Shown: piece by piece, positions 38,470-44,109 of the stretch
Position numbering within the stretch: position 1 is the stretch's first letter
Layout of the letters: every line of letters begins with the position of its first letter
Assembly: GCF_000025565.1 (NCBI RefSeq)
Contig: NC_014121.1
Location: 1,736,001 to 1,800,000 of the forward strand
Source: Enterobacter cloacae subsp. cloacae ATCC 13047
Lineage (GTDB): Bacteria > Pseudomonadota > Gammaproteobacteria > Enterobacterales > Enterobacteriaceae
Reading direction: 5' to 3'
Length of the DNA: 64,000 nucleotides
Made by a program: the position numbers and the translations under genes
The notes under the pieces: model-generated
Told to the model about the DNA's origin: nothing
The model's database searches: none
The model's input: only the letters and a program-made list of their open reading frames with translations

Positions 38470-39372
38470 TTACGGGTGCAGTGCCTCGTCATCGGTCGAT
38501 ACCCGTTTACCGATGTCTCTGAGCTGTGAAAATTTCTCAAGGAGTTGCGGGGCGTCATCCAGGCTTGTGGCAAACATCCACATATAGGTCATCACGGAGT
38601 AGATATGACCCGCCGTAATACCCGTCGAGTGGGTCATCAGGATAATGGTCAGCGTAAAAAGCAGGGCGATCAGCGAACCAATCAGTAAATATCCCCACGC
38701 TTCGCGGTCAGAGAGCGCAATACGCAAGTGTGCAAGCGTAGAATAATGACGTTTGAGGGTCGCAGAGCCCGCTTTATGTACATAATCCACCTCTTTCTCG
38801 AGGCGGTTATTGAGGCGTCTGAACAGCAATTCATTCTTATGGGTGAAACCGGAAACAAATCCCATCAGGATTAAGACGATGATGGCGCAGACGATACCAG
38901 CCCAGAATTCAATGGTCAGCAGCATAATGGCTGCACCAAAAAGCGAACTCATTGAGGTAATGAGCATGGGCAGATGCATTTCAAAGAAATCCACGAACTC
39001 ACGCGATAAGGTAACTCTCGCCGCGATTGTCGAATGATTAAGCTGGTATTTTCGCTGAGCCAGCACCACAGAGACCGCAAGCCCGGCGTAAATCCGTGCG
39101 AAGGTGCGCGTGTCCACGCTGCGCCTGGCGGCACCAATGCACCAGATAAACAGGACCATTAGCCCATACAGTGCAGCGCTCACGGTATCCCCGGCGAGAA
39201 TGGCATTTATCGCGATCCCCGCAAGTACGGGATAGAGTAAAAAGGTCACATTTTCGGCAATAACCAGAAAGAAGGTAATAAACAGCTTCTTGCGGTGCCG
39301 CACGGCAAGTGCCTTGAGCGAGCCAACAACCCCGGAAACGACCGGAGGACAATGAGTATTTTTAAGGATCAT
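38470..39372 (-). CDS. ABC-type six-transmembrane domain protein without ATPase
   Basis: 300 residues, all membrane domain: about six helices (ITFFLVIAENVTFLLYPVL, AALYGLMVLFIWCIGA, LITSMSSLFGAAIMLL, FWAGIVCAIIVLILMGFVSG, YLLIGSLIALLFTLTIILM, GHIYSVMTYMWMFATSL). It resembles the stand-alone ABC six-transmembrane family (Pfam ABC_membrane_3) and has no Walker motifs; no ATPase gene lies nearby. It is upstream of the RND gene and likely in one operon. Function unknown. The ATG at 39372 has no clear ribosome-binding site. A shared direct-repeat box lies about 100 bp upstream. Confidence 0.7.
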   Translation of the reverse strand: MILKNTHCPPVVSGVVGSLKALAVRHRKKLFITFFLVIAENVTFLLYPVLAGIAINAILAGDTVSAALYGLMVLFIWCIGAARRSVDTRTFARIYAGLAVSVVLAQRKYQLNHSTIAARVTLSREFVDFFEMHLPMLITSMSSLFGAAIMLLTIEFWAGIVCAIIVLILMGFVSGFTHKNELLFRRLNNRLEKEVDYVHKAGSATLKRHYSTLAHLRIALSDREAWGYLLIGSLIALLFTLTIILMTHSTGITAGHIYSVMTYMWMFATSLDDAPQLLEKFSQLRDIGKRVSTDDEALHP

Positions 39373-39473
39373 ATTTTTCGAGTTATTAATGCCAGAGAGC
39401 AGGGGAATTCCGTCAGGAATTTATCCATTAACCGTTACTTTATACAGCGCATGTTTAGTACTGATGTGCGATT

Positions 39474-39494
39474 TGTGGAGGTTATATGGAGACA
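39474..39494 (-). promoter_or_regulatory. Island box A: direct repeat, likely response-regulator site
   Basis: Plus-strand TGTGGAG (39474-39480) and TATGGAG (39485-39491) start 11 bp apart, followed by ACA. In the direction of the pump operon this reads CTCCATA, four bases, CTCCACA. A -10-like TATAAA lies about 30 bp downstream in that direction (39439-39444). The same arrangement occurs at 40024 and 44023. Confidence 0.65.
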
Positions 39495-39499
39495 GTAAA

Positions 39500-39886
39500 T
39501 TAAATCATCCTTAACATGAGATAAATGGGTGAGCCAACAAAAAATATAATGAGAAAACATTCGCAGTAAAACACCAGATCGGCAATATCAGGTGCGATGT
39601 TTAACAAAATACTGAAAATGATGATCAGGTAGATAAAAATCAATGCCAGGCACAGGGCCATGACAAGGAGTTCCGTCAATCCGCCTCCTTTATGTTGAAT
39701 CGCAAGAAAAAACGATGTCGCTGCGATACAACCATAAATAACAGGTGAGGAGATAATGGTTGCCGCCACTTTTTCATCGACTTCATGTATCAGGATCATC
39801 CAAAGATGCAATAATCCCCACGATACAATAAGAAACAAACATGACGTGCCAATGTTAGCAGGTGAGACATATCTATTAATATTCAT
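39500..39886 (-). CDS. Small four-helix membrane protein of the CrrAB-like island
   Basis: 128 residues with four predicted helices (about 9-31, 43-62, 70-97, 103-125), short loops and no known domain. It sits between the pump operon and the response-regulator gene, on its own minus-strand unit with a shared box upstream. In Klebsiella the CrrAB locus drives crrC, a protein of roughly 130 residues that raises colistin resistance via PmrAB; length and place make this gene a candidate equivalent, but I cannot confirm sequence similarity. No clear ribosome-binding site before the ATG at 39886. Confidence 0.6.
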   Translation of the reverse strand: MNINRYVSPANIGTSCLFLIVSWGLLHLWMILIHEVDEKVAATIISSPVIYGCIAATSFFLAIQHKGGGLTELLVMALCLALIFIYLIIIFSILLNIAPDIADLVFYCECFLIIFFVGSPIYLMLRMI

Positions 39887-40001
39887 GGTGAGTGTCTTCG
39901 GGTATTAATGAAAGCAATTGATAGACCGGGGTGCGTGCGAGAAGTTCAACGGTTTATTCTCTTTGGTCGTTTTTTTCTGAATAAAAAAGATTACGTCTGT
40001 A

Positions 40002-40044
40002 TATGGAGTATTTATTTCCGAAATGTGGAGGAAGTGTGGAGACA
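40002..40044 (-). promoter_or_regulatory. Island box B: three repeats between the small membrane gene and the response regulator
   Basis: Plus-strand heptamers TATGGAG (40002), TGTGGAG (40024) and TGTGGAG (40035) start 22 and 11 bp apart, that is, on one face of the helix; the last is followed by ACA as in box A. Read toward the 128-residue gene, a -10-like TAATCT (39988-39993) lies 30 bp beyond the 40024 copy. The divergent response-regulator gene starts at 40201, so the box could also serve autoregulation. Confidence 0.65.
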
Positions 40045-40200
40045 ATAACCTAAGGGGGTTCGGTTGTGGCAGAAATGTTTATAAAAAGTCGTCGCGCAAC
40101 GGCACTTTTTTGTCGTGCGTGGGTCTTAGACTTTTATAAAATGACGTATAGCGTATTTTCTCAACATAATAGAGACGCTTTCAGTTCCTGTGGAGATAAA

Positions 40201-40905
40201 ATGTACAAAAATAATTTAATCCTAGTCGCCGAAGATGAAGATGAAATCGCCGATATACTGATGAGCTACCTGCAGCGGGCTGGGATGAAAACGTTAAGGG
40301 CAACTGACGGTGAGCAGGCGATAAATCTGACACGTCTGCATAAACCGGATCTCGTTTTGCTGGATATCCAGTTGCCGGTATTTGATGGCTGGAGCGTTCT
40401 TACCACGCTGCGCCGGGAGAGTACGGTGCCTGTTATTATGGTCACCGCCCTCGATCAGGATGTTGATAAGCTGATGGGATTGCGTCTGGGCGCAGACGAC
40501 TACGTGATCAAGCCTTTCAATCCCTCTGAAGTTGTCGCGCGAGTCGAAGCCGTACTGCGCAGGACGAAGGCTCACGTTCAACAGGTGGCTGCAATGCCGC
40601 TCAGGACGCCCTTCATCACGGTCTACCCGGATGATTTCTATATAGAAGTTACGGTGGGGGAAGAGGTGGTTTGCCCGGTATTGACCACCACAGAATTTAA
40701 ATTGCTGACTTACCTGGTCAGGAACCCAAGAAAGGTCTGCTCTCGTGAGGAATTACTTAACGCCTGCCTGCCGGAAGGCGATACCTTAGACAGAACGGTC
40801 GACAGCCACATGAGCAAACTGCGTAAAAAACTGGAGCTTGCAGGTCTTCATGGTGTGCCAGAAAGCATTAGAGGAATGGGCTACCGGCTGGGAGAAAAGA
40901 AATGA
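40201..40905 (+). CDS. crrA: OmpR-family response regulator, CrrA/AdeR-like
   Basis: 234 residues. Receiver domain with acidic pocket (VAEDEDE), phosphoacceptor Asp55 in LLDIQLP, and switch Lys in VIKPFNPSEVVARVEAVLRR; then a winged-helix DNA-binding domain (TTTEFKLLTYLVRNPRKVCS, RTVDSHMSKLRKKLE, RGMGYRL). The TALDQDVDKLMGLRLGADDY stretch is strongly reminiscent of Acinetobacter AdeR and Klebsiella CrrA. ATG 40201 is chosen because TGTGGAG precedes it; the frame runs upstream to 40066 without similarity. Its stop overlaps the kinase start (ATGA). It probably binds the repeated boxes of this island. Confidence 0.7.
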   Translation: MYKNNLILVAEDEDEIADILMSYLQRAGMKTLRATDGEQAINLTRLHKPDLVLLDIQLPVFDGWSVLTTLRRESTVPVIMVTALDQDVDKLMGLRLGADDYVIKPFNPSEVVARVEAVLRRTKAHVQQVAAMPLRTPFITVYPDDFYIEVTVGEEVVCPVLTTTEFKLLTYLVRNPRKVCSREELLNACLPEGDTLDRTVDSHMSKLRKKLELAGLHGVPESIRGMGYRLGEKK

Positions 40906-41969
40906 GCAGAGAATCTGTTCTGAGCCGCCAGATTCTGACCTACATGTTAACGCTGGCATTGATGATTATCGCCATCGCTATCCTGGGGTCCTGGCTGTTT
41001 TACAGCTTCGTACTCGATTACCTTCCGGGCGGCGTAGCGGCCGGTAACGATGAAAATATGACGATGTGGGACTGGGTGTGGATCGTGACGGTCTCTGCAA
41101 TCAGTGTGATGATTTCCCTCTTTTTAACCGTAAAGCTGTCATCGCGCATCCTCACGCCATTAAACGCGGTTGCCACAAGCCTGAAACGCATCTCGCAGGG
41201 CGAGCTGGATGCCAGGGCCTGGTGCGCCAGTTCCCGGCTTGGCGAGATAAATCATCTCGTCAACGACTTCAACGAAATGGCTGAAAAATTACAGACGCTG
41301 GACAGTCAACGTAAATCCTGGAATGCGGCGATTGCTCATGAGTTGAGAACGCCCGTCACGATTTTACGCGGGCGGCTTCAGGGGCTCGTCGACGGTGTTT
41401 TTACGCCGGAACCCGTTCTGTTTAATAACCTGCTTAAACAAACCGAAGGGTTGGCGCGGCTGATAGAAGATCTCAGGGTTGTCAGTTCAGACGGCGGTGC
41501 CGGTTATACGTTATACAAGAGTGAGATCGATCTGAAGGAAACCCTCGAAACGGCGCTGGAAACCTTCAGACCCGAGTTTGAGCGTAAGCAATTTACTCTT
41601 CGTACCGAACTTAAAGCCCAGCGGTGTCTCTGCGATCCGCTACGTATTAATCAGTGCTTAACCGTGCTGTTCGACAATGCGCTGCATTATTCGACATCAC
41701 GTAAACTCATCGTAAAAAATGGCGTGTTTGGCAGAGAAAATTACATTCTGATTCAGGACGAAGGGCCGGGCATTCCCCGCGAATTTCATGATTTTCTCTT
41801 CCAGCCCTTTCAGCGGGATAAAGGGGCCAGACAATTGAATCCTGAAGGGTGTGGTTTAGGGCTGTCGGTGGTCAAAGCCATCATGTCTGCGCACGGTGGC
41901 GATGTCACCTATGTATTGACGAAGCAAAACCACTCCCTCTTCAAATTAACCTGGCCGATCGCGTCGTAA
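40902..41969 (+). CDS. crrB: Sensor histidine kinase, CrrB/AdeS-like
   Basis: 355 residues. Two transmembrane helices (about 11-37 and 57-79) frame a periplasmic loop of only about 20 residues, then a HAMP domain, the H-box with His146 in WNAAIAHELRTPVTILRGRL, the N-box LFDNALHYS, and DEGPGIP and GCGLGLSVVKAI. The short sensor loop suggests sensing within the membrane. The H-box region is very close to AdeS (WNAAIAHELRTPITILQGRL as I recall). In Klebsiella, point changes in CrrB give high colistin resistance. It overlaps crrA by four bases. Confidence 0.7.
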   Translation: MSRESVLSRQILTYMLTLALMIIAIAILGSWLFYSFVLDYLPGGVAAGNDENMTMWDWVWIVTVSAISVMISLFLTVKLSSRILTPLNAVATSLKRISQGELDARAWCASSRLGEINHLVNDFNEMAEKLQTLDSQRKSWNAAIAHELRTPVTILRGRLQGLVDGVFTPEPVLFNNLLKQTEGLARLIEDLRVVSSDGGAGYTLYKSEIDLKETLETALETFRPEFERKQFTLRTELKAQRCLCDPLRINQCLTVLFDNALHYSTSRKLIVKNGVFGRENYILIQDEGPGIPREFHDFLFQPFQRDKGARQLNPEGCGLGLSVVKAIMSAHGGDVTYVLTKQNHSLFKLTWPIAS

Positions 41970-42373
41970 CTGCGTACAGGCTCAAATGAGCCTGTTTGCG
42001 ACGGGCGTCATTTGCCACATTTCACCTAACCTGGCATCCCATTCCGGCGGCGTGATAGTCAGTTTGCCCCGTTTCGGACTTAACGTTATCTCACTGAAGT
42101 AGATCTCGTCCCGGGTGAGCATGAGATCGACACGGCAATAGTCAATCCCCAGGGCCAGTGCTTGTGCCGCCAGCAGCGCTTCCTGATAAGAGGCGGGCTT
42201 GGGTATGTCCTGCGGAGTGTTGGGATATTCCATCTGGAAAGGCTGCAACTGCCAGTGGCGATCGTAAACGTTGATAAAACCATTGCCGCTTTCATCGGTG
42301 AAATCAGCTTCCACAAACTGCGCAACACCGTGGAAACAATGAATCCTCAACATTTCGGGTGTTGTGTTTTTGT

Positions 42374-42382
42374 CCGCGTCAT
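42374..42382. repeat. Target-site duplication, left copy
   Basis: CCGCGTCAT directly outside the left terminal repeat; identical to 43440-43448. Nine bases is the usual IS903 duplication length. Confidence 0.97.
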
Positions 42383-43439
42383 GGCTTTGTTGAATAAATC
42401 AGATTTCGGGTAAGTCTCCCCCGTAGCGGGTTGTGTTTTCAGGCAATACGCACGCTTTCAGGCATACCTGCTTTCGTCATTTTGTTCAGCGCTCGTACCA
42501 GGGCCATAGCCTCCGCAACCTGACCATCGTAGTCACGCAGCGTCAGTGAACCCCCGAACAGCTGTTTTACCCGGTACATCGCCGTTTCCGCTATCGAGCG
42601 ACGGTTGTAATCTGTTGTCCATTTCCACCGCGCATTACTCCCGGTCATTCGCTGATTAGCCACTGCACGGTTACGGTCTGCATATTCACCGGGCCAGTAA
42701 CCCGCACCTTTTCGGGGAGGGATAAGCGCGCTGATTTTCTTACGCCGCAGTTCATCGTGACAGAGCCGGGTGTCGTAAGCGCCGTCTGCCGATGCTGCCC
42801 TGATTTTTCTGTGAGTCTGCCGGATAAGACCCGGGAAGGCTTCTGAGTCCGTCACATTGTTCAGCGACAGGTCAGCGCAGATGATTTCATGTGTTTTACT
42901 GTCAACGGCGAGATGCAGCTTACGCCAGATACGGCGGCGTTCCTGGCCATGCTTTTTGACTTTCCACTCGCCTTCACCGAAGACCTTCAGCCCGGTGGAA
43001 TCAATTACCAGGTGTGCGATTTCACCCCGGGTGGGCGTTTTGAAACTGACGTTAACCGACTTTGCCCGCCTGCTGACACAGCTGTAATCCGGGCAGCGTA
43101 GCGGAACGTTCATCAGAGAAAAAATGGAATCAATAAAGCCCTGCGCAGCGCGCAGGGTCAGCCTGAATACGCGTTTAATGACCAGCACAGTCGTGATGGC
43201 AAGGTCAGAATAGCGCTGAGGTCTGCCTCGTGAAGAAGGTGTTGCTGACTCATACCAGGCCTGAATAGCTTCATTATCCAGCCAGAAAGTTATGGAGCCA
43301 CGGTTGATGAGGGCTTTATTGTAGGTGGGCCAGTTGGTGATTTTGAACTTTTGCTTTGCCACGGAACGGTCTGCGTTGTCGGGAAGATACGTGATCTGAT
43401 CCTTCAACTCAGCAAAAGTTCGATTTATTCAACAAAGCC
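42383..43439 (-). mobile_element. IS903-type insertion sequence (IS5 family), complete
   Basis: Exactly 1057 bp, bounded by perfect 18-bp inverted repeats GGCTTTGTTGAATAAATC (42383-42400) and its complement (43422-43439). It carries one transposase gene reading leftward. Length, ends and 9-bp target duplication are those of IS903. Perfect duplications and an intact transposase show a recent insertion, by simple transposition, into an ATP-grasp gene. Confidence 0.97.
42439..43407 (-). CDS. IS903-type transposase
   Basis: 322 residues, IS5-family DDE transposase. Core residues lie in HLVIDSTGLKVFGEGEWKV (first Asp), SADGAYDTRLC (second Asp) and NRRSIAETAMYRVKQLFGG (Glu in the Y-R-K signature). 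The N-terminal part KFKITNWPTYNKALINRGS is that of IS903. The classical IS903 protein is about 307 residues, so the first 15 may be an annotation extension. The frame is intact, so the element may still move. Confidence 0.96.
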   Translation of the reverse strand: MKDQITYLPDNADRSVAKQKFKITNWPTYNKALINRGSITFWLDNEAIQAWYESATPSSRGRPQRYSDLAITTVLVIKRVFRLTLRAAQGFIDSIFSLMNVPLRCPDYSCVSRRAKSVNVSFKTPTRGEIAHLVIDSTGLKVFGEGEWKVKKHGQERRRIWRKLHLAVDSKTHEIICADLSLNNVTDSEAFPGLIRQTHRKIRAASADGAYDTRLCHDELRRKKISALIPPRKGAGYWPGEYADRNRAVANQRMTGSNARWKWTTDYNRRSIAETAMYRVKQLFGGSLTLRDYDGQVAEAMALVRALNKMTKAGMPESVRIA

Positions 43440-43448
43440 CCGCGTCAT
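43440..43448. repeat. Target-site duplication, right copy
   Basis: CCGCGTCAT directly outside the right terminal repeat, identical to the left copy at 42374-42382. Confidence 0.97.
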
Positions 43449-44022
43449 TAAAGAGATCGATATACTTCTCGCACAGAATAACAGGAGGGATGTTTTTATA
43501 TTGCCATTCCCGTGTGGTGTAATATAGATTTCTCTTTAATGCCAGCCGAAGCTTGTTTTGCGATTTTTTAAGGTCAAATTCAGCTTTGTTTGTGCATATG
43601 ATCGCGCTTCCACTGTCATGGTTGCACTTTAACACAAATTTATGCGGCAGTTTCGTCATGTCGATGTGCTCAACGCGACGGTATACGTCAATCAATGGAA
43701 CGATTTTTAGACGTTGCGTTCTCGACAGGACATATTCCCGCACAGCGAGTTTATCCGCCAGCATCGTATAGTGTGCATTATGGTCATAGACCAGACGATG
43801 ACAAATTTTTTCGTTCAGGGTGGCAGGTGATTTTATATCAAATGTGTCGCCGTGGGTTGCTTTGAGACGGGACAGATGAAAGTTAATGTCTGATATTAAA
43901 TAAGACCGACACTTCCTGAGCAGATACTCAAGGTGTTTTAAATAATATGTGGTTTTGTTCATTCTTTCCTCCGGAATATCTGCATATTCTGAAGGAGAAG
44001 GATTGATTCTTATTGCCTGGAG

Positions 44023-44040
44023 TATGGAGGAAAAATGGAG
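44023..44040 (-). promoter_or_regulatory. Island box C: direct repeat upstream of the ATP-grasp gene
   Basis: Plus-strand TATGGAG (44023-44029) and AATGGAG (44034-44040) start 11 bp apart, about 60 bp upstream of the interrupted ATP-grasp gene and in the same orientation to it as boxes A and B have to their genes. A weaker -10-like CAGAAT lies about 32 bp beyond. Confidence 0.55.
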
Positions 44041-44073: not shown

Positions 44074-44109
44074 CAAAATAAAAGGATTAAACGTTCTGTT
44101 TAATCCTTT
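44074..44109 (-). terminator. Terminator downstream of sapF
   Basis: A 12-bp perfect stem AAAGGATTAAAC/GTTTAATCCTTT (44081-44092 with 44098-44109), followed leftward by TTATTTTGCG, about 50 bp after the sapF stop. Confidence 0.8.

What the first reader, a model, noticed from the sequence alone, without database searches (positions are those of the whole stretch)
39474..44040. Same 11-bp-phased TGGAG repeat in front of all three minus-strand units of the island
Boxes at 39474/39485, 40002/40024/40035 and 44023/44034 share the pattern T-R-T-GGAG, four bases, T-R-T-GGAG (the last box has AATGGAG), with start-to-start spacing of exactly 11 bp. In the first two the second heptamer is followed by ACA. 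All three have the same orientation relative to the gene they precede, and -10-like elements lie about 30 bp beyond in each. Tandem repeats at one helical turn are how OmpR-family regulators bind. This predicts a three-promoter regulon of the local response regulator: pump operon, 128-residue protein and ATP-grasp gene. I know of no description of this box.
Basis: seen in the sequence. Interest (0 to 1): 0.8.

Follow-up and report, generated by a model that had tools for sequence, protein, structure and literature searches.

The report
AdeR-type operators before three resistance promoters
The repeats are real, conserved binding sites for the neighbouring CrrA/AdeR switch protein of a drug-efflux island; one of the three sites has already been published, while the other two and a shared four-repeat layout beside the promoter look new.

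Summary
Observation confirmed. TRTGGAG-N4-TRTGGAG occurs three times in the window, on + in front of the three minus-strand units. Scored for full layout, these rank first among 71 of the genome's 72 near-matches. The island is CrrAB/CrrC/KexD. The box is not undescribed: it is the direct repeat of A. baumannii AdeR, and 40024-40041 is the motif that PMC11892822 places 159 bp upstream of this regulator, in a fragment the regulator shifts. I did not see the boxes at 39474 and 44023 in the passages I read. Window excluded, at least 12 of 14 letters recur in 37 of 44 pump, 39 of 41 crrC and 40 of 40 ATP-grasp promoters of Enterobacteriaceae and Pantoea. New here: the box is the distal half of an array of four half-sites at 11-bp steps, then 9 bp and a -10 hexamer, without a -35; the third half-site is not evident in the ATP-grasp group. 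The layout also fits the A. baumannii adeA promoter; among distant loci with a box, 23 of 24 keep the fourth half-site. Most likely: direct PhoB-like activation by CrrA at three promoters.

The parts
39452..39491 (-). CrrA operator of the ABCm-kexD pair, four half-sites: 39485-39491 CTCCATA, 39474-39480 CTCCACA, 39463-39469 GCACATC, 39452-39458 CTAAACA
   Evidence: profile of 31 relatives' rows
39437..39442 (-). -10-like hexamer TAAAGT
   Evidence: no -35 consensus partner
40002..40041 (-). CrrA operator of crrC, four half-sites: 40035-40041, 40024-40030, 40013-40019 (degenerate), 40002-40008; 40024-40041 is the published AdeR_Ec motif
   Evidence: PMC11892822 section 7
39987..39992 (-). -10-like hexamer AATCTT (weak here, better in relatives)
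44001..44040 (-). CrrA operator of the ATP-grasp gene: 44034-44040 CTCCATT, 44023-44029 CTCCATA, 44012-44018 AGGCAAT (no clear half-site), 44001-44007 ATCAATC
   Evidence: found in 40 of 40 other loci scored
43986..43991 (-). -10-like hexamer CAGAAT
40201..40905 (+). crrA (adeR_Ec), OmpR/PhoB-type response regulator
40902..41969 (+). crrB, sensor kinase; best NCBIfam hit AdeS, below cut-off
39500..39886 (-). crrC, 128 aa
   Evidence: NCBIfam CrrC 172.2 bits against cut-off 150
38470..39372 (-). ABC six-transmembrane protein
   Evidence: Pfam PF13748
35339..38434 (-). kexD (adeB_Ec), RND permease
43429..43962 (-). TupA-like ATP-grasp gene, N-terminal piece (gene interrupted)
   Evidence: Pfam PF14305
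41982..42353 (-). TupA-like ATP-grasp gene, C-terminal piece
   Evidence: Pfam PF14305

Best explanation
The boxes are the distal halves of three operators for the island's own response regulator CrrA (AdeR_Ec). Each operator has half-sites of consensus CTCCAYA, read toward the regulated gene, at strict 11-bp steps: a strong distal pair, a degenerate third (not evident in the ATP-grasp group), and an intermediate fourth. Nine base pairs after the fourth comes a -10 hexamer, and there is no -35. Phosphorylated CrrA would bind the distal pair as a head-to-tail dimer and lead a second dimer onto the weak proximal pair, where it stands in for the -35 element and recruits sigma-70 RNA polymerase, as PhoB does. 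Targets: crrC (and the pump pair by read-through), the ABCm-kexD pair by an internal promoter, and the ATP-grasp gene. Shown here: sequence, conservation, layout. Published: binding to the fragment that holds the crrC box; regulation of pump and crrC. Inferred: phosphorylation, order of dimers, replacement of the -35, binding at 39474 and 44023.
For: Three sites against 0.06 expected. At least 12 of 14 letters in 37 of 44 pump, 39 of 41 crrC and 40 of 40 ATP-grasp promoters, window excluded; specific to 11-bp spacing and strand. One register of half-sites and -10 in three promoter groups. In distant loci with a box, fourth half-site in 23 of 24 and the best -10 match at the same offset, A. baumannii adeA included. 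DNA-binding domain closest to AdeR, 5x5l. Published gel shift and reciprocal function with A. baumannii AdeR; expression of pump and crrC dependent on ECL_01761/62. The island sites rank 1-3 of 71 scored places in the genome.
Against: No binding data seen for 39474 or 44023. The published shift used a 539-bp fragment. The window's crrC -10 is poor. The third half-site is not above background in the ATP-grasp group. In distant loci the -10 reaches 4 of 6 in only 7 of 24. RT-PCR puts kexD on one mRNA with crrC, so the pump box may add little. 7 of 44 pump promoters missed the score. 9 of 33 distant loci had no box by the rule used. BaeR-type sites look alike.
Confidence: 0.85

Rival explanations
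1. The boxes are BaeR sites: the paralogue BaeR, whose sites also contain CTCCAT, controls or co-controls the three promoters.
For: The stretch upstream of what I take for mdtA in this genome has a related tandem, AATGGAGGAAATATGGAA. CTCCAT tandems at 11 bp downstream of acrF occur in genomes with and without crrA.
Against: The published gel shift and the expression data are for CrrA/AdeR_Ec. The mdtA tandem lacks the -10 at the fixed place and scores 20 by my own count against 23-27 for the island sites. The CrrA binding domain is nearer to AdeR than to BaeR, and distant boxed loci have the site beside an AdeR-like regulator.
Confidence: 0.08
2. Only the distal pair matters (a plain two-half-site AdeR box); half-sites 3 and 4 are ordinary promoter sequence, partly a degenerate -35 region.
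For: Published accounts describe only the direct repeat. Half-site 3 is weak everywhere and not evident in the ATP-grasp group.
Against: Half-site 4 is the best of offsets 38-74 in each of the three groups and recurs in 23 of 24 distant boxed loci, against a mean of 2.9 at other offsets.
Confidence: 0.25
3. Chance or ribosome-binding-site-like TGGAG words without regulatory role.
For: TGGAG occurs 55 times on + in the window, and one TGTGGAG lies just before crrA at 40189.
Against: Spacing-, strand- and gene-specific conservation and 0 of 100 shuffles; the sites are antisense to the genes they precede.
Confidence: 0.01

Closest known systems
AdeR operator in the adeR-adeA spacer of Acinetobacter baumannii (AAGTGTGGAGNAAGTGTGGAG as quoted in PMC10052836)
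   Same: The same heptamer, 11-bp step and orientation to the pump; the spacer of L244 shows the same half-sites 1, 2 and 4, the 9-bp gap and AATAAT. AdeR proteins of the two species substitute for each other.
   Different: Known as a two-copy repeat before one pump operon; here three promoters, two of which I did not see described. CrrA falls below NCBIfam's AdeR cut-off (262.7 against 340 bits).
dzrR box of Dickeya, Ralstonia and Burkholderia (CTCCATC-N2-A-N-CTCCAT, PMC10052836)
   Same: The reverse complement of the same 11-bp tandem, before an RND pump, footprinted.
   Different: That paper states that the AdeR site is not in the DzrR target promoter; it compared one strand only, as I read it. 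DzrR is reported as not phosphorylation-dependent.
BaeR box (TTTTTCTCCATDATTGGC, recalled)
   Same: Contains CTCCAT; paralogous regulator.
   Different: Other flanks; the putative mdtA site of this genome lacks the fixed -10 place.
PhoB pho box and class II activation (recalled)
   Same: 11-bp direct repeats that end about 10 bp before the -10 and stand in for the -35.
   Different: Other half-site sequence (recalled).

Membership tests
AdeR-type operator | tandem (A)AGTGTGGAG repeat at 11-bp step | tested here: met
   motif quoted
AdeR-type operator | bound by an AdeR-family regulator | not testable with these tools
   published for the fragment with 40024-40041; not seen for 39474 and 44023
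AdeR-type operator | lies upstream of an RND pump gene | tested here: met
   39474 before ABCm-kexD; conserved in 37 of 44 other loci
AdeR (NCBIfam NF012227 equivalog) | score over cut-off 340 | tested here: not met
   262.7 bits, though it is the best family
BaeR (NCBIfam NF007982 equivalog) | score over cut-off 380 | tested here: not met
   177.9 bits
CrrAB/CrrC/KexD island | CrrC equivalog beside RR, HK and RND permease | tested here: met
   172.2 against 150 bits; gene order
OmpR/PhoB-type response regulator | receiver plus Trans_reg_C domain | tested here: met
   PF00072 and PF00486
PhoB-like class II activation | repeats end about 10 bp before the -10, no -35 | tested here: met
   9-bp gap; no consensus promoter at these -10s. 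The layout only, not the mechanism

The most novel reading that the evidence does not exclude
AdeR, CrrA and DzrR share one promoter design across alpha-, beta- and gammaproteobacteria: four phased half-sites ending 9 bp before the -10. The published 10-bp direct repeat is only its upstream half; the weak downstream half sets how strongly the pump is induced. The TupA-like ATP-grasp gene is the most constant CrrA target, kept with its box even where pump and crrC are not found beside crrA.
Probability: 0.6. Interest if true: 0.55.

Novelty: new member of a known kind. Interest (0 to 1): 0.42.

Why it matters
CrrAB, AdeRS and DzrR govern efflux and cationic-peptide resistance in several opportunists. 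Seeing their sites as one operator with a fixed place beside the -10 makes direct targets predictable: in this genome only the three island promoters score high, so the motility and beta-lactam effects of deleting the regulator (PMC11892822) are more likely indirect. It also points to the ATP-grasp gene, probably the 'glycosyltransferase' beside crrB in the K. pneumoniae literature, as a core member of the regulon.

Tried and rejected
Two further genome hits of the looser pattern were followed. The one downstream of acrF: among the 30 loci shown of 60 genomes searched, CTCCAT tandems are kept in part, with and without crrA, so I do not count it as a CrrA site. The one at C3:2536351 scores 20 on the combined scale against 23-27 for the island.

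K. pneumoniae ATCC 13883: 4 matches with at most one mismatch, 2 of them in the island; 64 with at most two against 43 for the control, so a genome-wide list by the tandem alone is mostly background. The other two were not followed.

A scan with a recalled BaeR consensus gave 66 hits with up to 2 mismatches (control 21) and was not pursued. The AdeR family search over 369 genomes of the class gave 3 genomes at E 1e-80, none over cut-off, and none of the 14 controls. The regulators of L246-L249 have no box of 12 or more within 450 bp upstream.

Pump-box misses (7 of 44): L040, L090, L094, L118, where kexD lies 36-88 bp from crrC; L057, with a TetR gene in between; L085, a spacer of about 205 bp without a box; L051, a fault of my script, its box being visible. 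The two crrC misses score 11 (L083, L087). Loci in which a gene is absent or cut off were not counted: 3 pump, 6 crrC, 7 ATP-grasp of 48. Seven pump rows (L055, L056, L058, L079-L082) were left out of the profile because their best pair is half-sites 2 and 3; one step up they fit the layout. My notebook says 47 loci; the number is 48 with the window.

Searches behind 'not seen in print' for 39474 and 44023: (open-licence PMC papers only), plus the passages read. Three papers likely to bear on it are not held: McConville 2020, Cheng 2016, Wen 2017; a description there is possible. I saw no figure, so a box drawn in a figure would have escaped me.
Full report
What is there. The window is bases 1736001-1800000 of contig 3 (5,314,581 bases) of a three-contig genome. 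Size and published locus fit E. cloacae ATCC 13047; the name is my inference. Between fabI and sapF lies an island: RND permease KexD, an ABC six-transmembrane protein, CrrC (128 aa; NCBIfam equivalog met), response regulator CrrA, kinase CrrB, and a TupA-like ATP-grasp gene interrupted by a transposase gene. They correspond to ECL_01758 to ECL_01762 of PMC9664853 (abstract, section 8 and passages seen), there called orthologues of KexD, CrrC, CrrA and CrrB.

With one mismatch allowed the tandem occurs 3 times in 64 kb against 0.06 expected. The whole genome has 2 perfect and 2 one-mismatch matches, 3 of the 4 in the island.

Conservation. By coordinates, two of the 19 are Lelliottia nimipressuralis and Leclercia adecarboxylata. 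Of the 80 loci, 23 were used here, 6 repeat genomes already held, 20 went into the distant test below, and 31 of lower identity were not used. At least 12 of 14 letters match in 38 of 45 pump, 40 of 42 crrC and 41 of 41 ATP-grasp promoters, window included. In a similar set without identical sequences, window or its near twin, the counts are 32 of 38, 37 of 39 and 39 of 39 at spacing 11; at spacings 7-10 and 12-15 at most 8, on the other strand at most 1, and 0.4-0.7% of mononucleotide shuffles. The ATP-grasp box lies 60-63 bp before the gene in 39 of 41, 50 and 53 bp in the other two. Where kexD follows crrC at 36-88 bp the internal box is missing (4 loci). In Pantoea L089 and L093 neither crrC nor kexD was found within the 5.5-kb flank, yet the ATP-grasp gene and its box remain.

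Four half-sites. Aligned on the box and read toward the gene, the three promoter groups (31, 39 and 39 distinct rows) share one register: CTCCAYA at offsets 22 and 33, a weak copy at 44, an intermediate copy at 55 (CTAAACA, CTCGACA, ATCAACA), then 9 bp and a hexamer at 71 such as TAGACT, CAAAAT or CAGAAT. Scored with a matrix made from offsets 22 and 33 only, offset 55 is the best of offsets 38-74 in each group. Offset 44 is second over all rows and in the pump and crrC groups, but not above background in the ATP-grasp group. A -10 matrix peaks at 71 in each group. In the window the arrays are 39452-39491, 40002-40041 and 44001-44040, the hexamers 39437-39442, 39987-39992 and 43986-43991. The consensus scan reports no -35/-10 promoter ending at these hexamers.

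Test outside that set. Of 33 loci with more distant regulators (about 47-59% identity where a figure is given), 24 have a box of at least 12 of 14. Two of these (L237, L243) were found by scanning the other strand of the locus, not by the rule of 450 bp upstream. The 9 without include L113, whose match begins at the end of the held stretch, and L103, which has a box in the opposite orientation. In the 24, half-site 4 matches at least 4 of 7 in 23, against a mean of 2.9 of 24 at other offsets; half-site 3 averages 4.33 of 7; the -10 match is highest at offset 71, with at least 4 of 6 in 7 of 24 against a mean of 0.65. Taking the most upstream register where several exist favours half-sites 3 and 4 somewhat. 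A. baumannii, IncC plasmids and Aeromonas are among them. The Rhizobium rows are close relatives, so these are not 24 independent events.

Genome-wide. Of the 72 places with at most two mismatches, 71 were scored for the full layout (73 rows); the island's three rank first to third (27, 26, 23; next 21). The last place, upstream of what I take for mdtA, scores 20 by my own count.

What is known. The AdeR site is a 10-bp direct repeat (passages of PMC9426577 and PMC10052836). PMC11892822 (abstract, sections 7 and 9, passages) reports that ECL_01761 shifts a 539-bp fragment with a motif 159 bp upstream of its ORF, which is 40024-40041 (159 bases lie between 40041 and 40201), that the AdeR proteins of the two species substitute for each other, and that ECL_01758 to ECL_01760 share an mRNA. 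PMC9664853 shows pump and crrC expression altered without ECL_01761 or 01762. PMC6026146 (passages) reports raised crrC, efflux pump and a neighbouring 'glycosyltransferase' in a K. pneumoniae crrB mutant; by gene order I take the last for the ATP-grasp gene. PMC10052836 footprints DzrR on a stretch with CTCCATCATATCTCCAT and says the AdeR site is absent; on the other strand it is the same tandem.

Mechanism. The DNA-binding domain is closest to AdeR's (5x5l, 74.2 bits), ahead of PhoB (49.0) and BaeR (40.7). The regulator most likely binds head to tail on the strong pair and then on the weak pair beside the -10. Cooperativity, phosphorylation and the role of the weak pair are inference.

Verdict. 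A real operator of a known kind, already published at one of its three places. New, as far as I could see: two further sites, one before an ATP-grasp gene, and the four-half-site layout shared by AdeR-like regulators.

Noticed in passing
42380-43440: An IS5-family insertion (transposase 42439-43407) splits the ATP-grasp gene in this strain; uninterrupted copies exist in relatives.
   Followed up: partly
39500-39886: PMC11892822 gives 539 bp between ECL_01760 and crrA, here 314 bp: the annotated start of crrC may be too far downstream; the 128-aa frame is conserved.
   Followed up: partly
L007:4220-4305 (G000:C3 near 4779719): CTCCAT words downstream of an acrF-like gene are conserved in genomes with and without crrA; possibly BaeR sites.
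   Followed up: partly
L240, L241: Conjugative IncC plasmids p1_b156b_NDM5 and pHD7411-NDM carry an AdeRS-like pair, a three-part RND pump, a GGDEF gene and the same operator layout.
   Followed up: partly
L057, L239: Salmonella plasmid and E. coli chromosome versions have a TetR-family gene between the pump unit and crrA; no box of 12 or more was found in the pump promoter.
   Followed up: partly
44081-44109: Terminator-like hairpin between sapF and the ATP-grasp promoter (7 found in the region, 4.8 expected); the inverted repeat is kept in many relatives.
   Followed up: no
L056/L115, L118, L053: Interrupted frames: crrA in Leclercia and in Enterobacter sp. EA-1, crrB in E. chuandaensis.
   Followed up: no
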